Part shown: positions 15,467-53,909 of the stretch, in pieces
Position numbering within the stretch: the stretch's first letter is position 1
Layout of the letters: every line of letters begins with the position of its first letter
Source of the DNA: a virus
Length of the DNA: 64,000 nt
Reading direction: 5' to 3' (one strand)
IMG/VR virus record: IMGVR_UViG_3300027708_000051
Span: 1 to 64,000 of that record
Made by a program: the position numbers and the translations under genes
The notes under the pieces: model-generated
The model's database searches: none
Told to the model about the DNA's origin: nothing
The model's input: the letters and a program-made list of their open reading frames with translations, nothing else

Positions 15467-15467
15467 T

Positions 15468-17891: not shown

Positions 17892-17923
17892 AAATCACGG
17901 CTTAGGTCGTGATTTTTTATTTT
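17892..17923 (+). terminator. Rho-independent terminator after nrdA
   Basis: An eight-base-pair stem AAATCACG/CGTGATTT (17892-17899 with 17908-17915) encloses GCTTAGGT and runs into a T-rich tract. It ends the replication/nrd unit just before the late tail unit. Confidence 0.75.
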
Positions 17924-17928
17924 GGGGG

Positions 17929-17963
17929 TATTTATAAAAAATAATGACGACACTATATTTATA
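17929..17963 (+). promoter_or_regulatory. Two TATTTATA boxes before gp25 gene
   Basis: TATTTATA occurs at 17929-17936 and again at 17956-17963, the second ending three bases before the ATG at 17967. The pair lies between a terminator and the first gene of the tail unit, where a late promoter is expected. Function is inferred from recurrence of the motif. Confidence 0.4.
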
Positions 17964-17966
17964 GTT

Positions 17967-18425
17967 ATGGCAGATGGAACAACATATGGTTTAACTTTTC
18001 CCTTCAGAGATTCTTTTGATGGGAAATATTTAGATTTATCAAGTTATAATGACCAAGAAATTAGGTCTAATTTGATACATCTTTTATTATCTAAAAAAGG
18101 TAGTAGATATTATTTACCTGATTTTGGAACAAGATTATATGAATTTATATTTGAGCCATTAGACGGACCAACTTTTTCTGAAATAGAAACTGAAATAAGA
18201 GAATCTGCCGGAGTGTATTTACCGGGAATAAGAATAACTAATATTTCAATTACTGCGGCATCAGATGGTGATGAAGATAAAGGTAGTTATATAAACGATA
18301 ATGATGAAAGAGTATTTCGTGTACCTAACATCTCAAATAATGAACATACTGCAAAAGTTAAAATTGATTATATCATTAATGATGATGTGTTTAATAGTAG
18401 CGATTTTGTAATTATTAATATATAA
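17967..18425 (+). CDS. Baseplate wedge protein (T4 gp25-like)
   Basis: A 152-residue protein of the GPW/gp25 family. Its core reads EIRSNLIHLLLSKKGSRYYL followed by PDFGTRLYEFIFEPLD, which fits the family pattern of a helix, a turn, then PxFGxxL. gp25-like proteins join the wedge to the sheath and resemble one end of a sheath subunit. The frame is also open from a TTG at 17922, but ATG 17967 is preferred because the upstream segment lies in the terminator tail and promoter boxes. The gp6-like gene follows four bases after the stop, the standard order for contractile tail modules. Confidence 0.85.
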   Translation: MADGTTYGLTFPFRDSFDGKYLDLSSYNDQEIRSNLIHLLLSKKGSRYYLPDFGTRLYEFIFEPLDGPTFSEIETEIRESAGVYLPGIRITNISITAASDGDEDKGSYINDNDERVFRVPNISNNEHTAKVKIDYIINDDVFNSSDFVIINI

Positions 18426-18429
18426 AATT

Positions 18430-20268
18430 ATGGCAAACAAAAAAATTTCCTATACTACAAGAGATTTCCAATCAATTAGAACAGAGTTAATCAACTTTAC
18501 AAAAACTTATTACCCTGACACTATTCAAAACTTTAATGATGCGTCAGTATTTTCAGTATTGTTGGATTTAAATGCTGCGGTAACTGACAATTTACAATTT
18601 AATATTGATAGAAGTATCCAAGAAACGGTCCTTCAATATGCACAACAAAGGTCATCAATTTTTAATATTGCAAAAACTTACGGATTAAAAGTTCCGGGAA
18701 TGAGACCATCAGTTGCTTTAGTTGATTTTTCAATTACAGTTCCTGCTTATGGTGATAAAGAAGATTTAAGATATTGTGGTATTTTAAGGAGAGGTTCTCA
18801 AGTCAATGGAGCGGGTCAAGTATTTGAAACTGTTTATGATATTGATTTTGCGTCACCAATAAATGCGGAGGGGTATCCTAATAGATTAAAGATTCCTAAT
18901 TTTGATTCAAATAACAAATTATTAAATTATACCATAACTAAAAGAGAAACGGTTGTTAATGGAACAACTAAAGTATTCAAAAAAGTAATTACACCAAATG
19001 ATGTTAGACCTTTCTACGAATTATTTTTACCTGATAAAAACGTGTTAGGGGTGACTAGTGTATTATTAAAAGATAGTACACAATATACGAATATCCCGTC
19101 TGTACAAGAGTTTTTAGGATTAGATAACAGATGGTATGAAGTGGATTCTTTGGCGGAAGACAGAGTATTTGTTGAAGACCCAACCAAAGTATCTGACGCT
19201 CCGGGAATTAAAGTTGGAAAATATTTACAAGTTAGTGATAAATTTATTACAGAATTTACACCTGAAGGATTTTTAAAAATGACTTTTGGTGGTGGTTCTC
19301 AATCGGCTGATGAACAATTAAGAGAATTTGCGAGAGATGGTTACCAATTAAATTTATACAAATACTCAAACAATTTGGCTTTAGGTAGTTCATTGAAGGC
19401 AAATACAACATTATTTGTTCAGTATAGAGTCGGTGGTGGTGTTGGTAGTAATATTGGTGTTAATGCAATTACTCAAATAGGTACTGTTTCATTCTTTGTT
19501 AATGGACCTTCAGATAGTGTTAATACAACTGTAGTTAATTCATTAAGATGTACCAATGTGACTGCGGCTATTGGTGGAGCGGGATTTCCAACTACAGAAG
19601 AAGTTAGAAATTTGGTTGCATACAATTTCTCGGCACAAAAAAGAGCTGTAACTGTTAACGACTATGAATCAATAATTAGAACAATGCCGTCACAATTTGG
19701 TGCACCGGCTAAAGTATCTATTACTGAAAATAATAATAAAATTATTGTTCAAATGTTATCTTATGATGAAACAGGTAGATTAACTGAAGTTATATCTAAC
19801 ACATTAAAAAACAATGTGGCTAACTATCTTTCAAACTATCGTATGATAAATGATTATGTTTCTATTCAAAGTGCTAATGTTATTGATTTAAGTTTTAATA
19901 TTGACGTTGTTTTAGATAATACTCAGAATCAAGGAACTGTAATATCTCAAATTATTACTATCGTTTCAAATTATTTTGACCCGGCAAATAGACATATGGG
20001 TGAAAATGTTAATATATCTGAATTAAGACGACAAATACAAAGTGAAAATGGGGTAATTTCATTATCTGATATTCAAGTTTTCAATCAAGTGGGGGGACAA
20101 TATTCATCTTCACAAACATCTCAAAGATATATTGATTCTACAACAAAACAAATTGAATTGATTGACGATACTATTTTTGCGGAACCAAATCAAACTTATC
20201 AGGTTAAATATCCTAATAAAGATATTAATATTAGAGTTAAAAATTTAAAAACCGTTAACTTCTCTTGA
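18430..20268 (+). CDS. Baseplate wedge protein (T4 gp6 / gpJ-like)
   Basis: A 612-residue protein. The N-terminus (YTTRDFQSIRTELINFTKTY, then FNDASVFSVLLDLNAAVTDN) matches the opening of gp6/baseplate J proteins, where an FNDxSxG-like stretch and helices build the wedge dimer. The middle is strand-rich, and residues about 400-430 include RAVTVNDYESIIRTMPSQFG, a hallmark of the family. The C-terminus carries repeated alternating strands. It forms the inner ring that holds wedges around the hub and triggers sheath contraction. It follows gp25 directly. The length is close to T4 gp6. Confidence 0.85.
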   Translation: MANKKISYTTRDFQSIRTELINFTKTYYPDTIQNFNDASVFSVLLDLNAAVTDNLQFNIDRSIQETVLQYAQQRSSIFNIAKTYGLKVPGMRPSVALVDFSITVPAYGDKEDLRYCGILRRGSQVNGAGQVFETVYDIDFASPINAEGYPNRLKIPNFDSNNKLLNYTITKRETVVNGTTKVFKKVITPNDVRPFYELFLPDKNVLGVTSVLLKDSTQYTNIPSVQEFLGLDNRWYEVDSLAEDRVFVEDPTKVSDAPGIKVGKYLQVSDKFITEFTPEGFLKMTFGGGSQSADEQLREFARDGYQLNLYKYSNNLALGSSLKANTTLFVQYRVGGGVGSNIGVNAITQIGTVSFFVNGPSDSVNTTVVNSLRCTNVTAAIGGAGFPTTEEVRNLVAYNFSAQKRAVTVNDYESIIRTMPSQFGAPAKVSITENNNKIIVQMLSYDETGRLTEVISNTLKNNVANYLSNYRMINDYVSIQSANVIDLSFNIDVVLDNTQNQGTVISQIITIVSNYFDPANRHMGENVNISELRRQIQSENGVISLSDIQVFNQVGGQYSSSQTSQRYIDSTTKQIELIDDTIFAEPNQTYQVKYPNKDINIRVKNLKTVNFS

Positions 20269-21286: not shown

Positions 21287-24200
21287 ATGTCAAAGTCATA
21301 TAGAGTAAGAACGAAGGTTGGTGTCGATACTTCTTTAAAAGTATTAATAGAACAAGAATTCGAGCATTTAGAAATTCTATCCTTAAAAATTTTACAAAGT
21401 GATATCTACACGAGACAATGTTCCGATTATGGAGTTATTGTTGGTCGTGTTAGTGTTAATAATGGGTTTGGTATCCCAAATGCTAAAGTTTCTATCTTCA
21501 TTCCTATAGATAGTGTTGACCAAAAAAATCCAATTATATCTGAATTATATCCGTATACATCATTGTTAGTTAATAATGATGAGGGGTATAGATATAATTT
21601 ATTGCCTTATGTTAAATCATATAGTGCACACGTTCCAACCGGAACTTTCTTTACCAGAAATGATGTATTAACAGACCCTACTTTAATTGAAGTTTACGAC
21701 AAATATTATAAATATAATGCGGTAACTAATGAAAGTGGTGATTATATGATATTTGGAGTTCCTGTGGGTTCTCATACTATAGTTATGGATGTTGACTTAT
21801 CTGATATTGGTGAATTTTCATTGTCTCCTCAGGATTTAATTAGAATGGGTATTGCGACCGAAGCTCAAGTTTCCGGAACTAGTTTTAAATCGTCAAACAA
21901 TTTACGTGAATTACCTCAAATCATTAATCTTAGTAAATCTATTGAAGTGGAACCATTATGGGGTCAACCTGAAATTTGTAATTTAGGGATTACAAGAACA
22001 GATTTTGATTTAAGTAGTGAGGCTAATGTTGATATTAGACCTACGGCAATTTTTATGGGGTCAATAATTTCAGGTCCAAATAGTAGTTCAGTTACAACAG
22101 GATGTAGACCACCAAATAATTCAGGTCATTTATGTAATTTAACTGTGGGTCCTGGTGATATATTGTCAATTAGACAAACAATTAAACAAGATTCAAATGG
22201 TAGACCAATTTTAGAAAATTTTAGTTTAGAAAGTGGGGGTAAAGTTATTGATGAAAATGGGACTTGGTTAATTGATGTTCCAATGAATTTGGATTATTAC
22301 ACTACTAATGAGTTTGGTGAACAAGTTTTATCTAATGACCCTGAAGTAGGTATACCAACCAAAGGTAAATACAGATTTAAAGTTAAATGGTCTCAATCTC
22401 CATCATCAAGTGAACCGACAAAACGAGGTTATTTTTTAGTTCCAAACATTAAAGAATATAATGGTAATAATACTCAGAAATCGTATGCGTTCAGTGTTGA
22501 TTGGAATGATTATGCGTACACGGGTACAACATCTGATAATATATTAGCACAAAAAATTGTTCAAGAAGCTATTAATTGTGATGATAAATTTTATCTAATG
22601 CAATATAATAAAGTTTATACCGTATCACAATTTATTGATGGTGTCACGGCAGGTTCAGGAATAGAAAGATATGTTGGTATTAAAAATATATTAGACGAGA
22701 CTTGTTCGGGACTTAATAATAGATTCCCAACAAATGACGGTAATTTTAGATTTGATATTTTATATATCATTTTTATGTTTTTTAGTATTATATTAACACC
22801 GGTATTTTTTGCGTTAATATTATTACTTCATATTTTATATTTTGTAATTTGGTTAGTACGAGAATTTGTTATATACGTTTTTATTAGTTGGGCAATATAC
22901 CAATCGGTAAATGCTTTTATATTATCAGTTACTTCATATCCGGCATTAGGTTTAATATTTGGGTATGTTGCTTTAGGATTATTTTATCTTGGGTTAGCTG
23001 CGTTTTTTTATTGGTTGAAAAAACAATTAGACAAAATTGATTTAAGTGGGATAAAAGTTCCTATTTTAACATATCCGGATTGTGAGTTATGTTCTTGTAG
23101 TCCTGATTCACAAACTAGTTCTGAAGGAACTGATGATGGTACGGGGGCACAGGCTTTGGCAGCGACTAATCAAGCAAAACCTTGTCCATCAATAAAATCA
23201 GACAATGGGGTTACATCAATAACACTTTCTCCTGGTATATTGCAATTATTCAGTGTGGGTTCTTATTTGTTAAAACCAATAGGTCCTGAAAATTTACCAG
23301 GTCCTCCTTATTTACCTAATACAGGATTTTTACCTGAACGTATACCGGTATACTCTCAAGAATTTGCCGGATTATCATATGATAATCAATACGCTTCTGT
23401 AAATATTGGTGCTCCTTATTTAACTTTAGCTCAAAGTTCTAATCCTGATTTAAGTAGATATGTTTACACCACTAGTCTACCATTACCGGATAGAATTAAT
23501 TTATTTAATGTTAAGGCGAAATATTTTGATTCATCGGCATTTAATCCGGGTGGTGGTGTAAATAGAATTTCTGTTAATTTTAATCCTCAACAATCAGAAT
23601 TTCACACTGATAATACAGTTGTAATTATTTGTGATAAAGCGTCTATTCAAAATTTATCCGTAGGTACTATGGTTGCATTCCAAAATCCGACAATAAGTAA
23701 CGATGTTAATTTAACGGGTGGAACTACAAATGTTTATGGTAACAATGCGATTACTGGTTTTACAACAACAGGGTTGAGTAATGTTACTGTAAACTATGCT
23801 AACCCTAATGGTTCAGGTAATTTACAAAAAACATACTCAGTTAATATAACGGCGACTACCACAAACACATATCATAAGTTTCCTACTGATATGGAGTATT
23901 TTCAAGTAATTACTGCGATGACATATAGTCAATTTAGTAGTCAATGTAATCCTTCATCTAGTCCTGATTCATTAAATAATCGTTACATAAATAATACAAC
24001 ATTACTTGGGCAAGAATATTTGGATGGTTTTGGTTATTACTTTTGGCATTTGAATTATTTTCATAGAGATAATGTCACACTTAGACCTATGGATTATGTT
24101 AAAGATAAAAACGAAGTTTGTGTTTTAATATTAAATAGAGGTGTTGACCCTTATACCCCTAAAGTACCGATTGAGTATGGTTTGGGTAAATTATTTGGAT

Positions 24201-26593
24201 ACACTAATGAGGGTGATAAAAAGGTAAAAGGTTTTTATCATATGAACATTCCTATTCAAGGGAGTTATAAAAATATAAGTCATTTAAGTTCTAATTTAAC
24301 CAATAGTAATATTAATACAGATTCTTATTCGGGTCAAAAATTATATTTTAATTCATTTTCGTATCATCCTGAACTAACAACAACTTTTGGACCAATAACG
24401 GGTTATACTGGTGGAACGGCTTATGTTTATACAGGTCCTATAAATTCAGGATATTCAGGGTTTAATTCTAATTTAATTAGTTATTATTCAAGTATGGATA
24501 ATAACTCATATAATACTTTTGCACCTAATTGTGGAGGTGTTATTAATAATGCTCACGGTAATATAGACCAATATGTGGCATTACAAGATTTTAGTCACGG
24601 TTTAAAAGTTAGTTCTAATAATCATTTTAGTTGGATAATTATTGAAGATACATTTAATTTTTATGGTATTTTATTTGATACTAACATATTAAATGGTAAT
24701 TATGTATATTCACCTAATACAGGTTATAATCAAGGATATTTCCCTAATGAAATAATTGAAGGTGGTCCTGTTATGTATACTAATTTGGATTTAGGTGATG
24801 TTGTTTGGTATGATGGTGATGATAACCAACACAACCCAACACGTCTATTTAATACTTCAAGTGCTCCATTTTATGTTACATCAACTTACTACACACCTAT
24901 GTATAATACAACAGGTAATACGTTATCATTCTCATCAGGATTAAACGGAAATCAAATAGTAATGAGAGGTGATAGATTACCAACATCAACAAGTGTTGAG
25001 GAATATTGTTGTAATGGTATGGTTTTACAAAAAAATACTAAATTTCAAATTTTCTTAATTCCTGAGGACGGGGTTATTGGTATTAACAGTAGTCAGAATT
25101 CAACTGGAAGTGCTAGTTCAGGTGATTATGCCGCGGTTCATAATGATTTGGCGGGCTCAACAGGTATTATTAAAGTTTTTGATTCATTTACTTGTAATGG
25201 TTCTGTTAACTTAGAGTGTTATAATTGTAAAAGAGCTCCGGGAACATATAATGGAACAATTGAGATTAAAGACCATCCTTGTCAAGAATTTAATGGTAAA
25301 ACAATTTTTGAATATGGGTGTTATAAATTTGTGACAACAATATTTATATCGTTACTTGAAGATTGGAAATTAATGTTTGAGTGGATTGCTCGAAATATGG
25401 TAATGCTTGGCGCTTGTAGAAATGTGTTTTCACATAGATTCATTAACAATTGGATTAACGGTACTTTATACGCATTTCCATTTAAAAATGAAATTATTGG
25501 ATATACCTCACCAACTAGTGCAACACCAAATCAACCAATTCCTAGTTACTGTGATAGAACAGTTATATATCATTATCAAACAAAAAACTTTTATTATAGA
25601 AGTACATTATATAATCCAACAACAAATGAATTTGAAGTGAGAGGTGGTGATAAAGATTTAGGTTTCCCAACAACAATTATGGATTTAGGACCGAGAGCTG
25701 ATTATATACAAGAATTGGTTATGTCTGATGAATATGATGGTTATATTGCAAATAAATTAGATACATCTTCTTATGGTACGGTAGATGATATTCTTAATTT
25801 ATTTATAGTAAGCAGATTTATGGACCAAACATTCTTAAAAACATTGCTTGGGTCTTTAAATATTTTAGCATACTTTTCAAATAGTAGACCAAGTAGAGGG
25901 GTTGGTGGTGCTAATTTACAAATTGATGCGGATTATGCTCAATTAATATCAATTAACTCAGAATTAGGTGTTGCACCATTTTTACCTGGAAATTATCCTG
26001 ATGACCCGGACCCGACAAAACAGAATCCAATTTTCTTTGATTGTGATAATGTTTTAGGTATTTTCTTTTCATCAGATACTCAGTTAAGAGATTATATTAC
26101 ACCAAAAAGAACTATTATTAATCCTTCGGGTACAACTACAAGTATTTGTACATTTAGTAATTTTCCGGTGTATTCACAAAGGGTTCCACTTTCTCAATGG
26201 AGAATAGAGTCTAATGTTGGTAGTCCCGCAGATTCTATTTTTGGTCATCAATATAACAATTGGGATTTTAGTGTTAGTGGAGGTACTACAATATTTTCAC
26301 ATAAGTATCAATCATTAGATAGGTTATTAGGTGAATCAAGATATTTTAGAAGTAATGGTACTCAAGTACAGTATGATAAAGGTTATATCTATGCTGTTGA
26401 TAATGGGTCTGTAAATCCACCATCACCACCACATATATCTGCCGACCCAACATATTGGAATCAAAATAGTGTGGATATTCAATTAGTAACTGTTGGTGCA
26501 CCATTTCATTTTTATTTTGGGTTAAGACGAGGGGCGTCAGCTTTTGATAGATTTAGAACTAAATGGATAAACACAAGTAATATAGTAAATTAA
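21287..26593 (+). CDS. Giant tail/baseplate structural protein with internal membrane-spanning segment
   Basis: A 1768-residue protein of no recognised family. Residues about 45-200 resemble a carboxypeptidase-regulatory/transthyretin-like beta domain (VGRVSVNNGFGIPNAKVSIF, then NESGDYMIFGVPVGSHTIVM). Residues 491-580 are a nearly continuous hydrophobic stretch with three to four probable membrane helices, containing only a few charges. A Cys-rich segment CELCSC follows. The rest is long, Asn/Thr/Gly-rich, beta-type virion sequence with scattered Cys pairs. Position between gp6 and other tail genes, and two bases before the next gene, indicates a baseplate or tail-tip protein. The buried membrane segment is highly unusual in such a protein. 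Confidence 0.7.
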   Translation: MSKSYRVRTKVGVDTSLKVLIEQEFEHLEILSLKILQSDIYTRQCSDYGVIVGRVSVNNGFGIPNAKVSIFIPIDSVDQKNPIISELYPYTSLLVNNDEGYRYNLLPYVKSYSAHVPTGTFFTRNDVLTDPTLIEVYDKYYKYNAVTNESGDYMIFGVPVGSHTIVMDVDLSDIGEFSLSPQDLIRMGIATEAQVSGTSFKSSNNLRELPQIINLSKSIEVEPLWGQPEICNLGITRTDFDLSSEANVDIRPTAIFMGSIISGPNSSSVTTGCRPPNNSGHLCNLTVGPGDILSIRQTIKQDSNGRPILENFSLESGGKVIDENGTWLIDVPMNLDYYTTNEFGEQVLSNDPEVGIPTKGKYRFKVKWSQSPSSSEPTKRGYFLVPNIKEYNGNNTQKSYAFSVDWNDYAYTGTTSDNILAQKIVQEAINCDDKFYLMQYNKVYTVSQFIDGVTAGSGIERYVGIKNILDETCSGLNNRFPTNDGNFRFDILYIIFMFFSIILTPVFFALILLLHILYFVIWLVREFVIYVFISWAIYQSVNAFILSVTSYPALGLIFGYVALGLFYLGLAAFFYWLKKQLDKIDLSGIKVPILTYPDCELCSCSPDSQTSSEGTDDGTGAQALAATNQAKPCPSIKSDNGVTSITLSPGILQLFSVGSYLLKPIGPENLPGPPYLPNTGFLPERIPVYSQEFAGLSYDNQYASVNIGAPYLTLAQSSNPDLSRYVYTTSLPLPDRINLFNVKAKYFDSSAFNPGGGVNRISVNFNPQQSEFHTDNTVVIICDKASIQNLSVGTMVAFQNPTISNDVNLTGGTTNVYGNNAITGFTTTGLSNVTVNYANPNGSGNLQKTYSVNITATTTNTYHKFPTDMEYFQVITAMTYSQFSSQCNPSSSPDSLNNRYINNTTLLGQEYLDGFGYYFWHLNYFHRDNVTLRPMDYVKDKNEVCVLILNRGVDPYTPKVPIEYGLGKLFGYTNEGDKKVKGFYHMNIPIQGSYKNISHLSSNLTNSNINTDSYSGQKLYFNSFSYHPELTTTFGPITGYTGGTAYVYTGPINSGYSGFNSNLISYYSSMDNNSYNTFAPNCGGVINNAHGNIDQYVALQDFSHGLKVSSNNHFSWIIIEDTFNFYGILFDTNILNGNYVYSPNTGYNQGYFPNEIIEGGPVMYTNLDLGDVVWYDGDDNQHNPTRLFNTSSAPFYVTSTYYTPMYNTTGNTLSFSSGLNGNQIVMRGDRLPTSTSVEEYCCNGMVLQKNTKFQIFLIPEDGVIGINSSQNSTGSASSGDYAAVHNDLAGSTGIIKVFDSFTCNGSVNLECYNCKRAPGTYNGTIEIKDHPCQEFNGKTIFEYGCYKFVTTIFISLLEDWKLMFEWIARNMVMLGACRNVFSHRFINNWINGTLYAFPFKNEIIGYTSPTSATPNQPIPSYCDRTVIYHYQTKNFYYRSTLYNPTTNEFEVRGGDKDLGFPTTIMDLGPRADYIQELVMSDEYDGYIANKLDTSSYGTVDDILNLFIVSRFMDQTFLKTLLGSLNILAYFSNSRPSRGVGGANLQIDADYAQLISINSELGVAPFLPGNYPDDPDPTKQNPIFFDCDNVLGIFFSSDTQLRDYITPKRTIINPSGTTTSICTFSNFPVYSQRVPLSQWRIESNVGSPADSIFGHQYNNWDFSVSGGTTIFSHKYQSLDRLLGESRYFRSNGTQVQYDKGYIYAVDNGSVNPPSPPHISADPTYWNQNSVDIQLVTVGAPFHFYFGLRRGASAFDRFRTKWINTSNIVN

Positions 26594-26594
26594 A

Positions 26595-28397
26595 ATGGAT
26601 GATATTAGAATTGTTTTAGGTTCATTAAGATATAAAACGGCAACAAATACCAATTTATCAATACCGACACCATTAGTTCAAAATTCAAAAAATTTACAAG
26701 AATTTGATAGAAGTATTGATGTTAATCTGGCTCAATTATTTGATGATGAAAGACAAAAATCAACAACATTTAGACCTGTTTGTAAATTTCAGTTATTATA
26801 TGAAAATGCTTATACAGGTTCAACGAAATATGAACCATTAAAGAATAATTTATATTATATAAATGAAGCGGGATTAACAATAAAACAATGTGGTCTTAAT
26901 GGGGCGGCTATTGCTTGGGAAGGATTTCCACAATATTATGAGTTTGATTTTATTCGTAGTGATTATAATGTTAGTGGTTATACACAACCACCAAACAATC
27001 ATATAAATTTTGTATCAAAAAGTGCGTCAACATACAATTGGAATTTTTTTGTTAGTTATCCTTATCAAAATTCGTATAGTAAAGTTTTAGAATATTATGA
27101 TGGTGTACATTCTCAAGCGGTTCAATGGACGATTTCTGATGGAATTCCATTTGTAATTAAATCAACTGACACATTTGTTAATGGTAACAAAGTTGTAAGA
27201 TTTGTGTGTCCGGTTAAACACGGATTATCAGTTAGTGAATTTGCTAAAATTAAAATTGTTGTTAATGGTGTGGTGACCACAAATGAAACATTTCAAGTAT
27301 TTGAATTAGGTGATGGTCTGCCGGGAACTGAAGAATATGTGTTTAACATTTATGACATTGGATTTCCTTCTGGTAAATTTGTTTCAGGATATAATGGAAC
27401 CTTTAAACGAATTATTAATAATGAAAACCCTAATGATACAACATCAAAGTATTATGTGTTGCAGCATAAATTATTAACTAATGTTGACGATGCGGTAATG
27501 GTAAACGCTGGTTTTGAACAAAATATTTTTGGTAGAAAAAAGAAGTTTGAAAGTCCTGCTTATACACCAAACGATGTTAAAAGAGTTTCAATTAAGGAAG
27601 GTGCACAATCATATAGTTTATCATTTAATAAAGATATTGATGTGAGTGTGTTAAGAGATAATCAAAAAAGACCAATAACTGAGTTGTATATTACAACATT
27701 ATGGAAAGGTTATTTTGGGTTAACATTAGGTAATTCGGGTTTAAAACAAGGATATGAATTTAATTTACCGCTATCACCTTTAAAGTTTCCAAGTAGTTGG
27801 TGGTCGTCAATTAATTCATTATCAAATTTTGTTGATGAAAATAATCAACCATATCCGTTAGGTACTTTAATTCCGGCGACACTTACCACATATACTTTTA
27901 AATACTTACAATCGTTAAAAGAGGGTGATGTTGTTGATGGTGGAATTTATGAATGGAATGATTATGAACAAAAAGAAAGGATAATTAGTGATATCTCTCA
28001 TAAATTCACTTATAACTCTTTTGTTTTTGACATTGGTTGTGGTAATCAATGTTCTAATCAATTAGGTTATTATTATCAACCACATAATAAAATTAAAATT
28101 AGAGATTATTCTGATTATATAGAGACCGGTAGTATTAAGAATATGGAGGATGTTCCGGATTATTCTTATTTCTCAACAACTTACAATTCTTTTATTTGGA
28201 GAGATTTATATACCTATGGATTTAAAGATAACAGTGGTAATGGTGTTGACTACCCATTTTTAAATGGAAAACATTACCCATATGCTAATTTTATTTTTAG
28301 AATAATACCTGAAGGAACTAATTATATAGAAAGTAGTTTACATAATTATGCAACTCTTTACGGAGCTGCAGAACCAACAAACGATAATTGTGAATAA
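26595..28397 (+). CDS. Tail/baseplate structural protein
   Basis: A 600-residue beta-rich protein that I do not recognise as a named family. It has no signal peptide, membrane segment or enzymatic motif. Composition (Asn, Tyr, Gly and Thr rich) and its place in a tightly packed tail operon point to a virion protein, probably baseplate-associated. A CGNQCSNQ segment in the last third could coordinate metal or form disulfides. The start is one base after the stop of the preceding giant protein, and the end overlaps the next gene. Confidence 0.7.
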   Translation: MDDIRIVLGSLRYKTATNTNLSIPTPLVQNSKNLQEFDRSIDVNLAQLFDDERQKSTTFRPVCKFQLLYENAYTGSTKYEPLKNNLYYINEAGLTIKQCGLNGAAIAWEGFPQYYEFDFIRSDYNVSGYTQPPNNHINFVSKSASTYNWNFFVSYPYQNSYSKVLEYYDGVHSQAVQWTISDGIPFVIKSTDTFVNGNKVVRFVCPVKHGLSVSEFAKIKIVVNGVVTTNETFQVFELGDGLPGTEEYVFNIYDIGFPSGKFVSGYNGTFKRIINNENPNDTTSKYYVLQHKLLTNVDDAVMVNAGFEQNIFGRKKKFESPAYTPNDVKRVSIKEGAQSYSLSFNKDIDVSVLRDNQKRPITELYITTLWKGYFGLTLGNSGLKQGYEFNLPLSPLKFPSSWWSSINSLSNFVDENNQPYPLGTLIPATLTTYTFKYLQSLKEGDVVDGGIYEWNDYEQKERIISDISHKFTYNSFVFDIGCGNQCSNQLGYYYQPHNKIKIRDYSDYIETGSIKNMEDVPDYSYFSTTYNSFIWRDLYTYGFKDNSGNGVDYPFLNGKHYPYANFIFRIIPEGTNYIESSLHNYATLYGAAEPTNDNCE

Positions 28398-29220
28398 TAA
28401 TAGTTATAAATTTACCTTACCAAAAGGAAACGACAAATATATTAATATACCTGTTGAAATTAAATGGGATATGATTGGACAAGATGACGCTGTTGAGGAA
28501 TATCAACAGAACGTTGTTGAAGAGGTTGTTGGTTTTCCTGGTGATTTTGAAATTTTAAGATTTGCTCACGCACCATACAGTAGTGATACAAAAACTGACA
28601 TTAAATATGATTTTCATTTTTTTAGTGTTAATGGAGGTGTTCCACCAAATCCATCTTCAGATATTTTAAATCCAAGTGTTAACGCAACTAATTGGAAGAT
28701 TAGTTATATTCCTGAAGGATTTTTAACAACAGAAATTTATTATTATGTAAAACCATTTACCAAGTCATTTTTTAAATTGGATTTTTACGATAGTAAAGAC
28801 GCTATCACTCAAACAAATTATTTCACAGTAATATTACCCGTTCAACAGGGGTTTACTGTTACTGCGGCGACCACATCGTATCAACCTCCGGTTAATATTA
28901 AAACACCGTCATTTAAATTGGATTATGTTGGTGATAAAGAAGGATTCTTTTTATATTGGTTAAGAAACACAAAATTCTTAGACATTAGTAAATTTTATAT
29001 GACGGCAAAATTCTTTGATGCTCGATTAGGTGTTTTTGTTAAAATGACTAATACGCCACAAAGTAATATTCCTGCTAAATTTAGATTTAATCCTGAGGAC
29101 TTTTTTTATTATGAGGTTAGGTTAAATTATTCAAATAAGACGTATGAAGTTTGGGATAGTAGTAGTAATAGAGCGGGAACTGCAAGTTCAATAAAATGGT
29201 ATGAATACGTAAATCCATAA
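28390..29220 (+). CDS. Tail/baseplate structural protein
   Basis: About 276 residues from a GTG at 28390, which overlaps the stop of the preceding gene by eight bases. An ATG at 28348 in the same frame would add 14 residues and a 50-base overlap. The GTG is preferred because the protein then begins with the strand SYKFTLPKGNDKYINIPVEI and the overlap is short. The sequence is beta-rich, aromatic and without cysteine-based or enzymatic motifs. The family is not recognised. The location between other structural genes supports a virion role. The next gene starts one base after its stop. Confidence 0.65.
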   Translation: MNNNSYKFTLPKGNDKYINIPVEIKWDMIGQDDAVEEYQQNVVEEVVGFPGDFEILRFAHAPYSSDTKTDIKYDFHFFSVNGGVPPNPSSDILNPSVNATNWKISYIPEGFLTTEIYYYVKPFTKSFFKLDFYDSKDAITQTNYFTVILPVQQGFTVTAATTSYQPPVNIKTPSFKLDYVGDKEGFFLYWLRNTKFLDISKFYMTAKFFDARLGVFVKMTNTPQSNIPAKFRFNPEDFFYYEVRLNYSNKTYEVWDSSSNRAGTASSIKWYEYVNP

Positions 29221-29221
29221 T

Positions 29222-30454
29222 ATGACAGAAAGAGATTATCATATTAAAATATCACCGGAATTTATTAGTGGAGACATTTTTAAAGTCACTTACAACGCAG
29301 GAACTATAACCGGAACCGGAATAGTTAATAAGTGTTGTGTTATCCCTGCAGAGACGTTTAAAATTGATTTGACGGGGACATCTTATGTCTATTCATCAAT
29401 GACTGCGGTATTATCGGGTGGAACAAATACATCTAATGTCTCAAAAGTAACACTTCAACCAGGTACATCATTGTTAACAGGATTAACAATCCCAATATTA
29501 TTGACCGAAAATACAATAGACATTGGGTATTATTCAGTTTTTGATGGTATGGTGTTACAACAAGACACTATGTTGAATTTTGTATTTTCAGGAGATAGTG
29601 TTTCACCATATCAATGTTATTTTTATAATACATCCGATACTGAATTTAAAAAGTATTTGGAATTTTCAACATATATGATTGATTGGGGGGATGGTTCAAC
29701 ACCTCAATCAGTAACATCGACATCACCTTTATCGCATCCTTATCCTCAAGTAACTACAGGTCAGACGTATAATATTGTTCTGTCGGGTATGAGTCCTTGG
29801 GGAACAAATATAATTAAAAAAACCATATATGTACCATTTACAGGTGCGACAATAACAAATAAAAATGGGACGGCTCACTTCCAACCGGCAGGTGGTAATT
29901 GGTCCAATACATTATTATCATATGATTATATATTCAGTGGTGATTCAAGTTGTAATGCTACGACAGATGATATATGGTTATTTAACACAGGGAATGTCCA
30001 ACCATTTACAGGTCAATCAGTTCCTTTCTTAATAACCGGATATACAACTTCATCGTTAAGTGATTTAAAACAGTACGGAACAGTAACATATAAACCGGGT
30101 ATTCAAGTAACTGGAAATACAGGTATGATTGGTACTTATTCCGGTGTAAGTTTAGATGGTTTATATACTGCCTATACAATTAATGATATTGATTACTATG
30201 ATTGGTCTGATGGGACAACAATTTTTGTTGCAAAATCTTCAGGTTTAACTTCTAATATGGTGGTTTGTGAACCAATAGTGAAAAATGAATTATTATTAGG
30301 GGTAATTGACGAGGCAGAAGTGCAATCCAATATATTTATAGAACGAGGGAAGAACTCAGCACTTGAGAGAGTTGAAAGATTGGGTGAGGTTGACAACGTA
30401 GGTGACTTAGTCAAATACGGGTATAAATTTTTTAATGTAAATACTAAAATATAA
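29222..30454 (+). CDS. Tail/baseplate protein with PKD-like domain
   Basis: A 410-residue structural protein. Residues about 150-205 form a PKD-type immunoglobulin-like domain: YMIDWGDGSTPQSV, a HPYPQV turn, and TYNIVLSGMSPWG. WGDGS plus the H-x-Y turn is the family signature. Such domains are common in Bacteroidota surface proteins and in phage tail proteins, where they mediate binding or act as spacers. The C-terminal 60 residues are charged and helical (AEVQSNIFIERGKNSALERV), possibly an attachment or oligomerisation segment. It is read in one unit with its neighbours, one base apart on each side. Confidence 0.7.
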   Translation: MTERDYHIKISPEFISGDIFKVTYNAGTITGTGIVNKCCVIPAETFKIDLTGTSYVYSSMTAVLSGGTNTSNVSKVTLQPGTSLLTGLTIPILLTENTIDIGYYSVFDGMVLQQDTMLNFVFSGDSVSPYQCYFYNTSDTEFKKYLEFSTYMIDWGDGSTPQSVTSTSPLSHPYPQVTTGQTYNIVLSGMSPWGTNIIKKTIYVPFTGATITNKNGTAHFQPAGGNWSNTLLSYDYIFSGDSSCNATTDDIWLFNTGNVQPFTGQSVPFLITGYTTSSLSDLKQYGTVTYKPGIQVTGNTGMIGTYSGVSLDGLYTAYTINDIDYYDWSDGTTIFVAKSSGLTSNMVVCEPIVKNELLLGVIDEAEVQSNIFIERGKNSALERVERLGEVDNVGDLVKYGYKFFNVNTKI

Positions 30455-30455
30455 T

Positions 30456-31364
30456 ATGGCTACAGGAACATATGGAACAATAAGACCGGCTGACGTAAGT
30501 CCGGAAGATGTTGAGATAATTTTAAATTATACACCATCAAGAGATGAAACAGATAATTTTGTCTTAACAAAGTTAGATGCGTTATCTATATTAAAACCTT
30601 ATTATAACAATACTAATACTGGTGTAAGTAACGGTATTGAAATATTAGGTGGTTTATATAATTTAAAACTACCTGCAGAACAATTTAATCAAATTGGGAT
30701 TTACACAATTTTTATTAGACCTGCTCAAATAAGAACTACAATATTAGATTGTGGGGTTTTATCTGCACTTCCTAATGTTAAGGGTTTAATTTTTGATTTA
30801 AATCAAGTACCTGCTACATATAGAAACAAATTTGTTAATCAAGGGTTGGTTGGTTTTAGAATTGAATATTTAAATGCTGATGGAACAAAAATACCTAATT
30901 TTTTTAGAATTATAACGTCATCATTTTTTTGTGAACCGGTTGTACAAAATTTAACAAATTCATCACAAAAATCTATAAGATACAAATATACTGATAACAA
31001 CACTAATTTATTATTTTGCACATTATCACCATCTTCGGCACCAACAAATAAGCCAAACGCGACACCGTATATTGGTCAACCAAATCAAAATGTGATTATT
31101 ACAAATACTTTTTTCAACCCAATAACTTTAGATGTTGAAATCGCAGAACACGATTTCTCAACATTGGCTATTGCTCTTTACGGTAATCAAACTAAATCTA
31201 TGGATGACGGTATCTACACATTATATGATACTAATGATAATATATACAAACAATATAACTTATATGAAATTAGAGACCAATTTAATGAGTTATTATATGA
31301 GGTAAGACAAGATAGAGGAAATAATATAGATTTTAGTAAAAACTTTACAAATATAACTCAATAA
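30456..31364 (+). CDS. Tail/baseplate structural protein
   Basis: A 302-residue protein of mixed strand and helix content with no recognised family. The N-terminus (MATGTYGTIRPADVSPEDVE) looks like a virion attachment arm. The C-terminal part is charged and helical (NLYEIRDQFNELLYEVRQD). The stop codon overlaps the ATG of the next gene by one base (TAATG), indicating translational coupling with the gpI-like protein, its most likely partner. The role in baseplate assembly is inferred from context only. Confidence 0.65.
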   Translation: MATGTYGTIRPADVSPEDVEIILNYTPSRDETDNFVLTKLDALSILKPYYNNTNTGVSNGIEILGGLYNLKLPAEQFNQIGIYTIFIRPAQIRTTILDCGVLSALPNVKGLIFDLNQVPATYRNKFVNQGLVGFRIEYLNADGTKIPNFFRIITSSFFCEPVVQNLTNSSQKSIRYKYTDNNTNLLFCTLSPSSAPTNKPNATPYIGQPNQNVIITNTFFNPITLDVEIAEHDFSTLAIALYGNQTKSMDDGIYTLYDTNDNIYKQYNLYEIRDQFNELLYEVRQDRGNNIDFSKNFTNITQ

Positions 31365-34300
31365 TGGCTACAGAAAAATTTACGTGTCCACCACAGACAG
31401 CATCAGGTTCAGGTACATTTTCCGATAATTTAGTTGGATTCCAGCTTGTTACCGGAGGTGGGCTAACGCAAGGTAATTTTGAGTTCACAACAGGTATTAC
31501 TGAAAAATCAAATAGAACTTTTACCACAGGTGCATTTTCCAATCCAATTAATTTAGAAGGATTAGGTGTTGATAGTGTAGCCCAATCTAAAACAATTTTT
31601 GAAAATAATTTTAAAGTATACCCAAATTTTGATATCACCCAAGTAACGAACTTTACATCATATGGGTCGATGGTTAAAAGGATTTCAACATCAGTTGAAA
31701 CTATTATTAGTAAATTCCCTGCGGCGTTAGAAGTAACGTTTATGGATGAAAATTATATTACAGGTACAACTGCGACAAATATTTCTTATAATCCAATTAC
31801 AAATGAAACAGAAATTGATTTAGATGTTACAAGAATTAGAAATCCATTTGATGTTGATTTTACGGTTAACGCAACTAGAAACTTAGAGTTAAGAGAAGTT
31901 CAAGTTTCTCCGTTAAGAAATATGACGACTCAGTTTATGAATTACTCGTTATATTATAGTGGTAATGGTTATGATGTCACACATATTGTTCCAACAACAT
32001 CATTGACATCAGGGATTCTTAAAATATATCTTAAAGGGAATGTTTTTCCAAATCAAACAGAAACTTATGATGACTTAGTTATTAGACCAAATGATTATCA
32101 AGTCAATCGAGTTTTTAATGAGGATTTAGACGAAGTTCAACGATTTTTATTAAATAGAAATGTTGTACCTATTTATACTGCGACATTCCAAGTTCCTAAT
32201 GAAAGTGACGATGGTACATTTTATATTCAAACTAAATTAGTTACTTGGCCTTTGTATGGTAAATGGAATTTAGATATTTTAACAAATTCATTTACAACTT
32301 ATTTAACAACATTAAATAATATTAGTGTGTTATTTGATGGGTATCAAACAAATTTAGTTTCAAGATTTTTAACAACAGACTCTCTTAAAGAATTTGACAC
32401 GTCTGACCAAAAGATTGAAAAAATATTACAAATATATGGTAGAAGTTTTGATGAAACTAAAAAATTCATCAATGGTTTGGCATATATGAACTCTGTTAAT
32501 TATAATACAGGTAATGATATTCCATCACAATTATTAAAAAATTTATCACAAACATTGGGTTGGTCGACAAATATGTCACCAATTACTAATGATGACTTTT
32601 TAGGTTCAGTATTTGGTCAAAAAAATGTGGATAAATCGGCATTTAGTGGTGTAGGTCAATCACAAACTCCGGATGAATTAAATTATCAATATTATAAAAA
32701 TTTAGTTCTAAATTCCGCTTATTTATTCAAATCAAAAGGAACAAGAAAATCTATTGAAACTTTAATGAGATTGATTGGAGCTCCGGATGCTTTAGTTGAG
32801 TTTAATGAATATGTTTATTTGGCGGACCAAAAAATAAATATTTCTGATTTTAATGCACAATATGCTAACATATCAGGTGGAACATATACTAAAATATTAC
32901 CAACATTAGATGGTGGATATACTTTTAGTATACAAGGTCATATATATTCAGGTTTCACAACAACATCTACATTACAAGAAGCGAATGTTACTAAGAGTGA
33001 TTACCCTATTGATAATAGTGGTTATCCAATGTCACCAGTTAACTCTGACACATATTTTTATCAAATGGGTAGTGGATGGTTTGAATCTACACCAAAACAT
33101 AGGTCTCCTGAACAACCTGATTTAACGACTAGTGTGTTTACGGGGTCTAATCCAAATTATCAAACAAAATTAACACCTTTTAGTTATGGTCAAGAATATT
33201 TAAATGTTTATAAATCATTTCCATTTACTGATTTAGGTTATAATTTGAGACCTGAAATAGATAATAACAAAAGTTGGGTTGATACTGAAATTGGAAATAG
33301 AAGTAATTTAGACGGAGGTTATAACGCATTATATAATGCTGGAAATGAAGGGTTAGTTATTAATGTAAAAAATATTGATTTATATTTAAATCCTGCACAA
33401 GGTTTAGTTTATGATGTTTGGTATATGTCTAGACAATTTAATTATCCTATTGCAAATGAAGGGTTAGGATATGTTGCACCAACAAGGTGTAATCCAAATC
33501 CTATTTCACCATATCCTCATAGAGGTGGAGTTGATTCAACAGTTATTAACCCACAACCATTAAAAGAAACATTTTTTGAATTTGCTCAAACATTTTGGAA
33601 AAATACTATTAACGTTAGAAATAGACAATATGCTACAGATGGAGGAACTAGTGGATATCCAACATTATCTTCAATCTATTGGAATTATTTACAATCAGAA
33701 TCTTTAGCGGGAGTTCAAAATGATAATTTTACATACAAAACAATGATTGAGTATGTAAGTGGAATGGGTGATTATTGGGTTAGATTAGTTGAACAGATGA
33801 TTCCGGGTACTACTATTTGGAATACTGGTGTTAAATTAGAAAATTCTATTTTTCATAGACAAAAATTTGTTTGGAGAAGACAAAGAGGTTGTGATTTAGT
33901 ACCTGTTCTTTGCAGACCTTGTAAATTTACGGGAAGTATTTATTTAAACAATTGTAATGTTTGGTCAAATGTTTGTAATAGATATCCGGATAAAGGTTTT
34001 GATGTTGTATTGGCAGATGTGATAAATAATTGGGCAAATCCTGTTAGTGGTCCTATTCCGGATACCTCAGGTTGTGATTTTAATACTATTAGTAGTAATT
34101 GGTTTGTTGACATTCGTATAAATGGGGTTAATATTCCTCAACCTTCATTCTTTACTGGCGGTGGACTTTATAATACGCCTAATTGTCCGTTACACAATGT
34201 GACCGATAGTTATCCTTGTTTAGAAGATTGGTCATACGCTTTAGACCAAACTCTACAACAAATGATTTCATTAGGGTATGATTATCGTTATGAAGATGTG

Positions 34301-34444
34301 TTTGGGAATGTTCTTGGATATGATAATAACCAAGCGGTTATTGTTAGAATATGGGATACAAATTGTTCTTCAACACAAATAATAAAAACTTTAACAATAA
34401 ATGTTGGTATACAATTTAGTATAACTTGTCAACAACTAATATAA
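31364..34444 (+). CDS. Baseplate protein with P2 gpI-like region (probable wedge/organiser)
   Basis: A 1026-residue protein. Residues about 350-490 read like tail protein I: KIEKILQIYGRSFDETKKFI, then a DIPSQLLKNLSQTLGW helix, and YLFKSKGTRKSIETLMRLIG followed by a strand. In P2-type tails gpI works with gpJ (the gp6 equivalent) in the wedge, and in T4 the large gp7 plays that part. The protein's size and its placement downstream of gp6 suit a gp7-like role. The C-terminal third is Cys-rich (CDLVPVLCRPCKFTG, CNVWSNVC). The gpI resemblance is by eye and the organiser role is inference. Confidence 0.65.
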   Translation: MATEKFTCPPQTASGSGTFSDNLVGFQLVTGGGLTQGNFEFTTGITEKSNRTFTTGAFSNPINLEGLGVDSVAQSKTIFENNFKVYPNFDITQVTNFTSYGSMVKRISTSVETIISKFPAALEVTFMDENYITGTTATNISYNPITNETEIDLDVTRIRNPFDVDFTVNATRNLELREVQVSPLRNMTTQFMNYSLYYSGNGYDVTHIVPTTSLTSGILKIYLKGNVFPNQTETYDDLVIRPNDYQVNRVFNEDLDEVQRFLLNRNVVPIYTATFQVPNESDDGTFYIQTKLVTWPLYGKWNLDILTNSFTTYLTTLNNISVLFDGYQTNLVSRFLTTDSLKEFDTSDQKIEKILQIYGRSFDETKKFINGLAYMNSVNYNTGNDIPSQLLKNLSQTLGWSTNMSPITNDDFLGSVFGQKNVDKSAFSGVGQSQTPDELNYQYYKNLVLNSAYLFKSKGTRKSIETLMRLIGAPDALVEFNEYVYLADQKINISDFNAQYANISGGTYTKILPTLDGGYTFSIQGHIYSGFTTTSTLQEANVTKSDYPIDNSGYPMSPVNSDTYFYQMGSGWFESTPKHRSPEQPDLTTSVFTGSNPNYQTKLTPFSYGQEYLNVYKSFPFTDLGYNLRPEIDNNKSWVDTEIGNRSNLDGGYNALYNAGNEGLVINVKNIDLYLNPAQGLVYDVWYMSRQFNYPIANEGLGYVAPTRCNPNPISPYPHRGGVDSTVINPQPLKETFFEFAQTFWKNTINVRNRQYATDGGTSGYPTLSSIYWNYLQSESLAGVQNDNFTYKTMIEYVSGMGDYWVRLVEQMIPGTTIWNTGVKLENSIFHRQKFVWRRQRGCDLVPVLCRPCKFTGSIYLNNCNVWSNVCNRYPDKGFDVVLADVINNWANPVSGPIPDTSGCDFNTISSNWFVDIRINGVNIPQPSFFTGGGLYNTPNCPLHNVTDSYPCLEDWSYALDQTLQQMISLGYDYRYEDVFGNVLGYDNNQAVIVRIWDTNCSSTQIIKTLTINVGIQFSITCQQLI

Positions 34445-34486
34445 TAATGAATATAAACTTTACCATAAATTGAATATAATAAATAA

Positions 34487-37400
34487 ATGAGTTGTTTTTT
34501 ATCATATAATGCTAGTATAACGGGAGATTGTACTAATCTTAACTTAGGGTCATTTACCATTACAATTAATGGTAATGCTCCCGACTATACAATTCAATGG
34601 TTATCACCGACCACAGGTACAACTGCGTTAGGTGCTGGTGTTACTGCGTATACTCAAACTAATTTATCTGCCGGTACATACTCATTTAATATTATTGATA
34701 GTTGTATTTCGGGTAATACAGTACAACCTGTTAATATTTACATATCTAGTGGAACTTGTGTTTCAATTACAAATGTTACTGATACTGTATGTGATGCGAG
34801 TAACGGTTCTTTAATTGTGGAAACTAGTAATTTTTATGGTAACGCGGTATTTTCATTATACAGTGAAACAACAGGTTTAATTTCAACATTTTATCCAACA
34901 AACAATTCATATTTATTTAATAATTTATCGTCTGGCATTTATTACGTGATTGCCAATGATGGAGGTGGATGTACAGGTAAATCTGAAAGCGTAATTGTTA
35001 AAAATTCATCAAATTTAAATTTTGGTTTATATGTTGTTGATGATGCGGGATGTGCATCTAATTCAGGTAAAATATTTATAACAGGTTTAACAGGCACACC
35101 ACCATATACTTATTTATGGTCTAATGGGGGAACTAATGATAGTATTACAGGTTTAACAGAAGGTGTTTATACAGTAACGGTAACTGACAGTAGTTATTGT
35201 TCTATTAGTAATACTGCGGTAATAAATAAAATATCACCAGTTGGGTTAGGTGCGATTTATTTAACACAACCAACTTGTTTTACGGCGGATGGTGAGGTGG
35301 AAATTATTATAACAGGTGGTACCGCACCATTTTATTATTTAGGGTCTAATGGAGTTACAAATGTTACATTTGATAGAACAGTTGTTTTTACGGGATTAGG
35401 TCCGGGAGGGTTTACCATTCAAGTTACTGACGCGGGATTATGTACTTTTACTGCAAGAACAAAGTTATTAACACCAAAAGGTATGTCTGCAGTATCAGTT
35501 GACATTACTAATTCAACTTGTAATGATTTTTCAGGTGTTGTTGGTCCTATTGTTGTGTTTGGTGGAACAGCACCTTATACGTTTACTTTGACAGATTCGT
35601 CAGGAAAACAAAATTCAAACACCGTTTATCAACCAAATTATATATTTAATAATTTATCTTCAGGTGATTATACTTTAGATATTACTGATAATGGTGGTTG
35701 TACATTCACAAGTGCTTATACGATTAATAACGTAGTTACCTTTGAATTATTTGCATCAACTATTGGTACAACTTGTGATGGTGATAACGGTTCAGTTACT
35801 TTAGAAATAACAAGTGGTGGGACGCCTCCTTATAGATACGAAATAAATGGTCAATCTATAAATAATGTATCATTAACTTCATATACATTTAACAATTTAG
35901 TTAGTGGTAATTATGTTGGAAGTGTAATAGATTCATCATTATGTAAACAAAGTCAAACATTTACCATTAACCAATCAAATACTATTGATTTTCATTTATT
36001 AGGTGAAAACTCAGTAAATGACGATGGAATTATTACTGCTTATATAACAAACGGAACACCTCCATTCACATTATATTTTAATGGTGATACTTCGGGAACT
36101 ACAGTTATGACAATACCTGATTTACCTGCGGGTAATTATTCGGTTAGAATTGTTGATAGTTCAGGATGTTCAAAAACAAAAAAAATACCAATTAAGGGTG
36201 AAAACCAATTTAACTCTGTAGGGTATTATAATGTTTGTCAGGGGTCATTTGACTCTCCAATAGCTGTCTTATCAAACATTAGACAATTTTTTTATGAAGG
36301 TTATAATGAATTGATAACACAAGGGTTTATATCATCAGGTTATACTAATTGTATGTTAACCGGAGCAACATTTTCGGCACAAACGACTGTTGGTGATTGT
36401 GTTAATTCAGTTATTTTTCATACGGGGACTTCTATAACAGATTATCCAACTGATGAATTATGGTTTTCGGCTATTACAACCTTAATTGAGTCTTGTCCTC
36501 AAATTGGGGATGGTAACATTGATATTGATTCGTTAAATAATACAATCACAGTCACGACAAATTGTGAACCTGAATCTTTACATAATTCAAATGTTTTAGT
36601 GGAACTAAGGATTGATTATGAAATTGAGTGTGTTTGTCCACCTGTAACCCCAAGTCCAACACCAACACCAACTTATACACCAACACAAACTCATACACCA
36701 ACACCAACTTATACACCAACACTAACAATGACACCTGGTGCTTCACCACCAGTGACTCCAACACACACCCCTACACCAAGTATTACACGAACTCATACAC
36801 CAACACCAACAATAACACAAACTAAAACTCCGACACTTACACCAAGTATAACGCCTACTCATACGCCAACACCGTCACCTAAAGACAAATATTATGTATA
36901 CTTAATGTGTGGAGAACACCCAAGTAACACAACGGTAGTAATTCAAACAGTTCCTGCGATACTAAATAATGTGATTAATGATGTTATACTTGATTTAACC
37001 CATAAGATTTGTTGGCAATTAGTTGATATTGGTACTAATCTACAACAATTACAATCTCAATGGAATGGTACTACTTACAATAATTATTTTACAGGTGGAG
37101 TAACACTATTCCCATATATTCCAACTAAAACACCTTGTGATGATTGTAAAAAAGCACTTGAAGCTTTACCGGTCCCAATTAAAAGTGATTGCCCAACTAG
37201 TTTAAGAAATTGGAGTGATTGTAAAGGTGCTGATGTTACTGGTGAAATATATATTATAACACCAAATGGTGTTGCAAGTCTTGTTTATTCATTTGGACCT
37301 AATTTTGATGTTAACTTATATCTTGGTAGTTTACCAACAAACAGTGGTGATATTATTAAAATAATATTAACACCACCATTAGACGGGGGGTCAATTGTTA

Positions 37401-53750: not shown

Positions 53751-53909
53751 ATGGGGCGTAAAAAAATTAAAACAGAAGAAAAAAAAATTAGGATGTCTAT
53801 AACAATAGACCCTAATATTGAAAAAATAATTAGAGATAAACATATTAATTTATCATCGTTGACTAATAAATTATTAACAGAATATTTTGGTGATGAAAAA
53901 AATATGTAG
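53751..53909 (+). CDS. Small ribbon-helix-helix-like DNA-binding protein
   Basis: 52 residues from the ATG at 53751; the frame is open further upstream, but that part is AT-rich leader containing the box. A basic start (MGRKKIKTEEKK) is followed by a strand IRMSITIDPNI and two helices (EKIIRDKHINLSSLTNKLL), the ribbon-helix-helix (Arc/MetJ) layout. Such proteins bind operators as dimers. The 3' end overlaps the HNH gene by 17 bases, so the pair is translationally coupled. It may restrain the nuclease gene or the shared promoter. The assignment rests on predicted secondary structure, not on a diagnostic motif. Confidence 0.55.
   Translation: MGRKKIKTEEKKIRMSITIDPNIEKIIRDKHINLSSLTNKLLTEYFGDEKNM

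What the first reader, a model, noticed from the sequence alone, without database searches (positions are those of the whole stretch)
22745..23014. Membrane-spanning segment buried in a 1768-residue baseplate-type protein
Residues 491-580 form an almost uninterrupted hydrophobic block, enough for three to four helices, inside a long hydrophilic beta-rich structural protein next to gp6. Such segments are not expected in wedge or fibre proteins. It could insert into the host membrane after contraction to form a DNA-entry channel, or anchor the baseplate during assembly. It is followed by a Cys-rich CELCSC segment.
Basis: partly seen in the sequence, partly recalled or inferred. Interest (0 to 1): 0.7.

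Follow-up and report, generated by a model that had tools for sequence, protein, structure and literature searches.

The report
Swappable membrane segment in phage baseplate-cluster protein
A giant protein encoded in the tail-baseplate gene cluster of uncultured, probably Bacteroidota-infecting, jumbo phages carries a membrane-type hydrophobic domain that every relative keeps but whose middle part is swapped between phages together with a neighbouring membrane-enzyme gene, which points to a membrane step in phage assembly or entry that has not been described.

Summary
The 1768-aa ORF (21287-26593, +) has one long hydrophobic block, residues about 485-583. It is present in all 211 homologues that span the site (identities down to 35%), at the same position. 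No homologue was found in Pfam, PHROGs, PDB, isolated phages or GTDB genomes.

The block is modular: a conserved 39-residue stem (487-525) with a polar stripe (D490, 504, H515); a cassette (about 526-580; 9 to >100 residues in relatives) exchanged between phages; and conserved cysteines on both sides (C473; C599, C602, C604), consistent with a metal or disulfide clamp holding the ends together.

Unexpected finding: the gene just upstream (20300-21211), a two-TM serine-type alpha/beta hydrolase, occurs in 34 of 211 loci, always with two related cassette classes. On a tree of residues 1-480, which lie between the two, hydrolase and cassette change together in 6-7 of 7 independent switches and never oppositely. 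Only the cassette tracks the hydrolase.

Best reading: a clamped helical domain embedded in the producing cell's inner membrane, partnered by the hydrolase in some phages. Insertion into the target cell during entry remains open. Virion location is inferred from gene position only.

The parts
21287..26593 (+). 1768-aa baseplate-cluster protein, a family of its own
   Evidence: ORF; more than 590 relatives in IMG/VR; no Pfam, PHROGs, PDB, isolate or GTDB relative
21428..21796 (+). N-terminal beta-sandwich (residues about 48-170), surface-protein-like fold
   Evidence: AF2 pLDDT about 70-92 here; weak Foldseek match to PA1324 and other beta-sandwich surface proteins
22703..22705 (+). C473, upstream cysteine of the putative clamp
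   Evidence: invariant 71/71 in the alignment, exactly 7 residues before the FPTND motif; a regex requiring this Cys matched 211/211
22745..22861 (+). Conserved hydrophobic stem (residues 487-525) with polar stripe D490, T/Q/R/K504, H515
   Evidence: dN/dS 0.02-0.30 against 11 relatives; polar positions fall on one helix face, periodicity at 100 degrees p below 0.001 by shuffle; AF2 helix 491-549
22862..23026 (+). Exchangeable hydrophobic cassette (residues 526-580)
   Evidence: 22% identical to L008 although residues 1-480 are 93% and the stem 95% identical; 48 cassette clusters at cut 0.7; length 9 to >100 aa in relatives
23081..23098 (+). CxxCxC motif (C599, C602, C604), downstream side of the putative clamp
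   Evidence: C599 and C602 71/71, C604 70/71; in L095, L097 and L111 C604 is lost and a Cys appears at the position of P592
20300..21211 (+). Two-TM serine-type alpha/beta hydrolase gene, genetically coupled to the cassette class
   Evidence: invariant S179, D206, H269 and GHSxG; weak alpha/beta-hydrolase Pfam hits in all 18 members; present only with two related cassette classes
17922..18425 (+). gp25-like baseplate wedge subunit
   Evidence: phrog_261 E=6e-14
18430..20268 (+). gp6 / Baseplate_J-like wedge subunit
   Evidence: phrog_219 E=7e-22, PF04865 E=2e-7
26595..37990 (+). Six downstream genes in conserved order (26595, 28348, 29222, 30456, 31364, 34487); no Kyte-Doolittle TM segment in any
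   Evidence: conserved offsets in 63-119 loci; the 1026-aa 31364 product has weak relatives after gp6 in the related isolates

Best explanation
Residues about 473-604 form a cysteine-clamped helical domain that sits in a lipid bilayer. The protein is made in the cytoplasm without a signal peptide and folds its beta-rich N-terminal part; the hydrophobic stem and cassette then insert as hairpins, so that both soluble parts stay on the same side. Most likely (inferred) this is the inner membrane of the producing cell, where the protein holds or positions the growing baseplate and, in phages with the window-type cassette, pairs through TM helices with the membrane hydrolase encoded just upstream. 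Shown here: the block, its universal conservation, the stem/cassette/cysteine anatomy, cassette exchange, and coupled gain and loss of hydrolase and cassette class. Inferred: membrane insertion, same-side topology, the clamp, physical partnership, the assembly stage, and virion membership.
For: Hydrophobic block in 211/211 homologues; Wimley-White insertion energies of about -13 to -20 kcal/mol for the best stem-spanning 19-mers. Stem under strong purifying selection while the cassette diverges but usually stays hydrophobic. Conserved Cys on both sides, with one lineage that moves the fourth Cys. The cassette can be almost absent (L101) or add helices, as expected for membrane hairpins and hard to reconcile with a packed protein core. 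The hydrolase with two TM segments is present if and only if the cassette belongs to two related classes: 24/24 distinct sequences against 0 of the rest, with L043 as the only near-exception; 6-7 of 7 independent switches concordant, sign test p=0.016-0.03, on two tree methods. The class effect peaks at residues 521-560; residues 1-480 and most of 607-1768 show none. L247, fetched by hydrolase and not by cassette, carries the predicted cassette type.
Against: No virion or membrane data exist for these uncultured phages. AF2 draws a single 59-residue helix (491-549), longer than a bilayer, with pLDDT only 63-80 in the stem. Most loci with the block have no hydrolase, so the hydrolase is not needed for its basic role. 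The coupling rests on about 7 independent events; the two cassette classes counted were chosen as those holding the hydrolase; co-transfer followed by homologisation of the middle is not excluded. A rapidly exchanged cassette is not an obvious need of a simple assembly anchor. The helix count by hydropathy is odd in many relatives (75 of 209 give 3), so conserved even parity is not shown.
Confidence: 0.45

Rival explanations
1. The block is carried shielded in the virion baseplate and inserts into the target cell's outer or inner membrane on contraction, anchoring the tail or lining a DNA-entry passage; the polar stripe of the stem would face the lumen of an oligomer.
For: Gene position next to gp6. 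The stem polar stripe lies on one helix face. The candidate tape-measure protein of a relative (583 aa, after the tube and hub genes) has no hydrophobic segment, and a tape-measure gene was not identified in the aquatic jumbo 'moraphages' (PMC12619734). Tape-measure proteins of other systems are predicted to do this (diffocin, PMC10996793). An exchangeable cassette could match variable host membrane partners.
Against: A wedge protein would stay near the outer membrane after contraction (general knowledge of T4). Another tail-type protein with hydrophobic segments lies next to a gp5-like gene in the same relative (G001 258842-260746) and is an equally good candidate. The hydrolase coupling is more easily explained in the cell that makes both proteins.
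Confidence: 0.27
2. The helices are a buried hydrophobic bundle in the virion (oligomerisation core or docking site for hydrophobic helices of partners such as the hydrolase) and never meet a lipid bilayer.
For: AF2 predicts one very long helix plus an antiparallel one, as in helical stalks; a docking role would also explain the coupling with a two-TM hydrolase.
Against: Length and sequence of the cassette vary freely, to near absence, which a packed core would not tolerate; the 34-residue stem is uniformly hydrophobic, 114 of 166 distinct stems having no charged residue in the helix.
Confidence: 0.2
3. The protein is not structural but an infected-cell membrane protein (for example superinfection exclusion or release control) that happens to lie in the late gene cluster; the hydrolase is its partner or its counter-gene.
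For: No proteomics; no relative among known structural proteins; hydrolase coupling.
Against: Conserved place between gp25-gp6 and the next structural-type genes in the loci with room to see; very large, beta-rich, with 10 invariant cysteines in a 71-sequence alignment, and no signal peptide.
Confidence: 0.08

Closest known systems
Thylakoid-anchored contractile injection system (tCIS) of Anabaena: Cis13 tail-fibre-like protein with a TM helix and extended baseplate protein Cis12 (PMC8894136)
   Same: A membrane helix in a protein attached to a contractile baseplate; the TM part is a lineage-specific addition; deleting it frees the particle from the membrane.
   Different: Cis13 has one C-terminal TM helix on a trimeric stalk; here the block is internal, multi-helix, flanked by conserved cysteines and exchangeable. 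No sequence relation was detected. It is a bacterial injection system, not a phage.
Tape-measure proteins with TM helices (diffocin TMP, five predicted TM helices, PMC10996793; HK97 TMP, as cited in PMC12619734)
   Same: Hydrophobic helices in a tail protein, proposed to enter the inner membrane.
   Different: Not in the tail tube by gene position, not alpha-helical throughout, encoded among wedge genes; a separate tape-measure candidate exists.
Streptomyces CisA membrane protein (PMC12237407)
   Same: Membrane protein encoded directly after baseplate genes and needed for firing of a contractile system at the membrane.
   Different: Separate bitopic protein with a periplasmic-binding-like domain; here the membrane block is built into a giant beta-rich protein.
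bS21-encoding Bacteroidetes huge phages of freshwater (PMC9723584)
   Same: Three long relatives carrying this gene (308, 272 and 166 kb) also have bS21 on the opposite strand beside the prohead protease, the hallmark of that group.
   Different: The passages found in that paper do not mention this protein or a membrane segment.

Membership tests
T4-type baseplate wedge (gp25-gp6 neighbourhood) | Adjacent gp25 and gp6 homologues | tested here: met
T4 gp7 wedge protein | Sequence or fold similarity to gp7 or any solved baseplate protein | tested here: not met
   no PHROG, Pfam or PDB-sequence hit; no Foldseek match with E at most 0.001 for residues 590-1768
Tape-measure protein | Gene after tail tube, long alpha-helical protein, PHROG TMP match | tested here: not met
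   beta-rich AF2 model, gene after gp6, no TMP match; separate candidate after tube and hub in G001
Thylakoid-anchored CIS anchor (Cis13/Cis12) | TM helix in a baseplate or fibre component | tested here: inconclusive
   hydrophobic block in 211/211, but attachment to the baseplate is inferred from gene order only
Thylakoid-anchored CIS anchor (Cis13/Cis12) | Membrane anchoring of the particle in vivo | not testable with these tools
   needs cryo-tomography or fractionation
bS21-encoding Bacteroidetes huge phages | bS21 on the opposite strand beside prohead protease | tested here: met
   met in relatives G001, G002, G003; the window's own 78-kb record was not tested for it
Serine alpha/beta hydrolases (upstream gene) | GHSxG elbow and Ser-Asp-His triad | tested here: met
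   S179, D206, H269 invariant; Pfam hits to several alpha/beta-hydrolase families, weak

The most novel reading that the evidence does not exclude
These jumbo phages build a baseplate protein around an interchangeable membrane module: a conserved cysteine-clamped stem that accepts different hydrophobic cassettes, each matched to a separate membrane partner, here a two-TM hydrolase carried or used at the membrane, so that phages re-tool their membrane step by swapping cassette and partner together.
Probability: 0.3. Interest if true: 0.82.

Novelty: new variant of a known kind. Interest (0 to 1): 0.62.

Why it matters
How contractile phages cross or use the inner membrane is still largely unknown, and membrane anchoring of a baseplate is documented in injection systems but, to my knowledge, not as a built-in conserved domain of a phage baseplate-cluster protein. 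A conserved hydrophobic stem with an exchangeable cassette, genetically tied to a membrane hydrolase, makes the question testable with a handful of constructs in laboratory bacteria and gives a marker for a widespread but uncultured phage group.

Tried and rejected
Frameshift or misassembly: rejected, 211 open homologues. Chance hydrophobicity: rejected for the 90-residue block. Known family by sequence: Pfam, PHROGs, PDB, isolate phages (three different queries) and GTDB genome contigs all empty. Fold search of residues 590-1768 against PDB and BFVD: no match with E at most 0.001 despite mean pLDDT 77.5; the whole 1179-residue model was searched, so single known domains could be missed. Even helix parity across the family: counts of 2, 3 and 4 are all common, so not claimed. 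L043 has a window-like cassette at the looser cut without the hydrolase and is counted against the coupling. Apparent lack of C473 in three loci was a regex artefact. Literature searches found no description of this protein.

Full report
Observation. The ORF 21287-26593 (+, 1768 aa) is intact. Kyte-Doolittle hydropathy puts one continuous block at residues 485-577 and nothing comparable elsewhere in the protein. A 90-residue window averages 1.75 against a maximum of 1.27 in 5000 shuffles. Of the 21 window proteins scanned (mainly structural-type), only this one and the product of 20300-21211 have such segments.

Family. IMG/VR holds well over 590 loci with a relative. Of the loci fetched, 211 span the site, at identities down to 35%. 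All 211 have the hydrophobic block, the upstream Cys and the downstream CxxC. No relative was found in Pfam, PHROGs, PDB, isolated phages or GTDB genome contigs. The gene stands in the order gp25 - gp6 - (hydrolase) - this gene - six further genes. The isolates with the nearest full-length gp6 relatives, Flavobacterium phage immuto and Microcystis phage Mel-JY01, and the uncultured 484-kb phage LR756508, share gp25 and gp6 but lack this gene and show no convincing hydrophobic block in the genes beside gp6; only two borderline single 19-mers at 1.61-1.63 appear. Three long relatives (308, 272, 166 kb) carry bS21 on the opposite strand next to the prohead protease, the hallmark of the freshwater Bacteroidetes bS21 phages (PMC9723584). 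Bacteroidota hosts are therefore inferred, not shown.

Anatomy. Residues 487-525 (the stem) evolve about as slowly as the N-terminal part (dN/dS 0.02-0.30) and carry a polar stripe: D490, a T/Q/R/K at 504 in most, H515; these lie on one helix face. Residues 526-580 (the cassette) diverge completely between otherwise close phages: L008 is 93% identical to the window over residues 1-480 and 95% over the stem but 22% in the cassette, while its cassette is 45% identical to that of L028, whose N-terminal part is only 73% identical. Cassettes range from about 9 to more than 100 residues. C473 lies seven residues before the conserved FPTND motif, and C599, C602 and C604 follow the block; all are invariant or nearly so, and in the three loci that lost C604 a cysteine appears at the position of P592. 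I read this as a metal or disulfide clamp bringing the two ends together; it is an inference, since C473 could also pair with other invariant cysteines. AlphaFold2 gives a beta-sandwich N-terminal domain (residues about 48-170, weakly similar to PA1324), helices 491-549 and 554-583, and a large mostly beta C-terminal part without a significant match in PDB or BFVD.

Coupled gene. The gene directly upstream, 20300-21211, encodes two TM segments followed by an alpha/beta hydrolase domain with invariant S179, D206 and H269. It is present in 34 of the 211 loci; elsewhere the gap between gp6 and this gene is nearly always 36-98 bases. Clustering the cassettes without reference to the hydrolase gives two related classes in which it is always present (24 of 24 distinct sequences at cut 0.6) and it is absent from all others; L043, which joins one class at a looser cut, lacks it. 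On a tree of residues 1-480, which lie between hydrolase gene and cassette, the hydrolase changes at least 7 times on supported branches; the cassette goes the same way in 6-7 of 7 and never the other way (sign test p 0.016-0.031; FastTree, IQ-TREE). A window scan shows that the class effect peaks at residues 521-560, with a weak remainder to about 650; residues 1-480 and the bulk of 607-1768 show none. L247, fetched with the hydrolase as query, has the predicted cassette type. The two were therefore gained and lost together although the stretch between them was not, which argues for functional coupling rather than mere linkage, with the caveat that only about seven events support it.

Mechanism. 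A hydrophobic stem with 19-mers of about -13 to -20 kcal/mol on the Wimley-White scale would be expected to enter the inner membrane of the cell that makes it unless shielded. The partner hydrolase is made in that same cell from the same cluster. I therefore favour a membrane-embedded role in the producing cell (anchoring or positioning the baseplate, with the hydrolase as a cassette-specific partner) over insertion into the target cell, which remains the main rival; a buried bundle without lipid is less likely because the cassette tolerates near absence and complete replacement. The tape-measure candidate of a relative (583 aa) has no hydrophobic segment, but a second tail-type protein next to a gp5-like gene does ('gp5-like' is my reading of its N-terminal sequence and no profile matched it), so this block need not be the only membrane-active part of the tail.

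Comparison. The nearest functional parallels are the TM helix of Cis13 in thylakoid-anchored injection systems (PMC8894136), CisA of Streptomyces (PMC12237407) and tape-measure proteins with TM helices (PMC10996793). None is known to share an internal position, flanking cysteines or an exchangeable cassette, and no sequence relation was detected. I file it as a new variant of a known kind.

Limits. All phages here are metagenomic; virion membership, membrane insertion, topology and enzyme activity are untested. Helix counts are from simple scales. The group comparison includes partial sequences, so the absolute identities for residues 607-1768 there are depressed by gaps.

Noticed in passing
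20300-21211 (+): Two-TM serine-type alpha/beta hydrolase inserted between gp6 and the giant protein in 34 of 211 loci; no isolate-phage relative.
   Followed up: yes
G001 (308-kb relative) 258842-260746, locus L234:2842-4746: 634-aa protein with hydrophobic segments at 411-429 and 492-518, next to a gene that looks gp5-like; weak PHROG tape-measure match (E=0.004). A second candidate for a membrane-active tail protein.
   Followed up: partly
L152, L154, L190, L182, around residues 1010-1075 of the homologue: A second, separate hydrophobic insertion in the C-terminal part, absent from most relatives.
   Followed up: no
L090, gap between gp6 and the giant protein: A TnpB-like (IS605-type) ORF sits where other loci carry the hydrolase; L092 has an unrelated 142-aa ORF there.
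   Followed up: no
14516-17882: Ribonucleotide reductase small and large subunit genes lie inside the tail region, directly before the gp25 gene.
   Followed up: no
10948-11607, 53887-54582, 58888-59613: Three endonuclease VII/HNH-like genes, possibly homing endonucleases.
   Followed up: no
G001 195968-199555: Tail sheath protein of 1195 aa with the PHROG sheath match only in its C-terminal part, residues about 897-1193.
   Followed up: no
1189-7965: 2258-aa protein after a small wedge-subunit gene (phrog_7145), without PHROG or Pfam match or hydrophobic segment.
   Followed up: no
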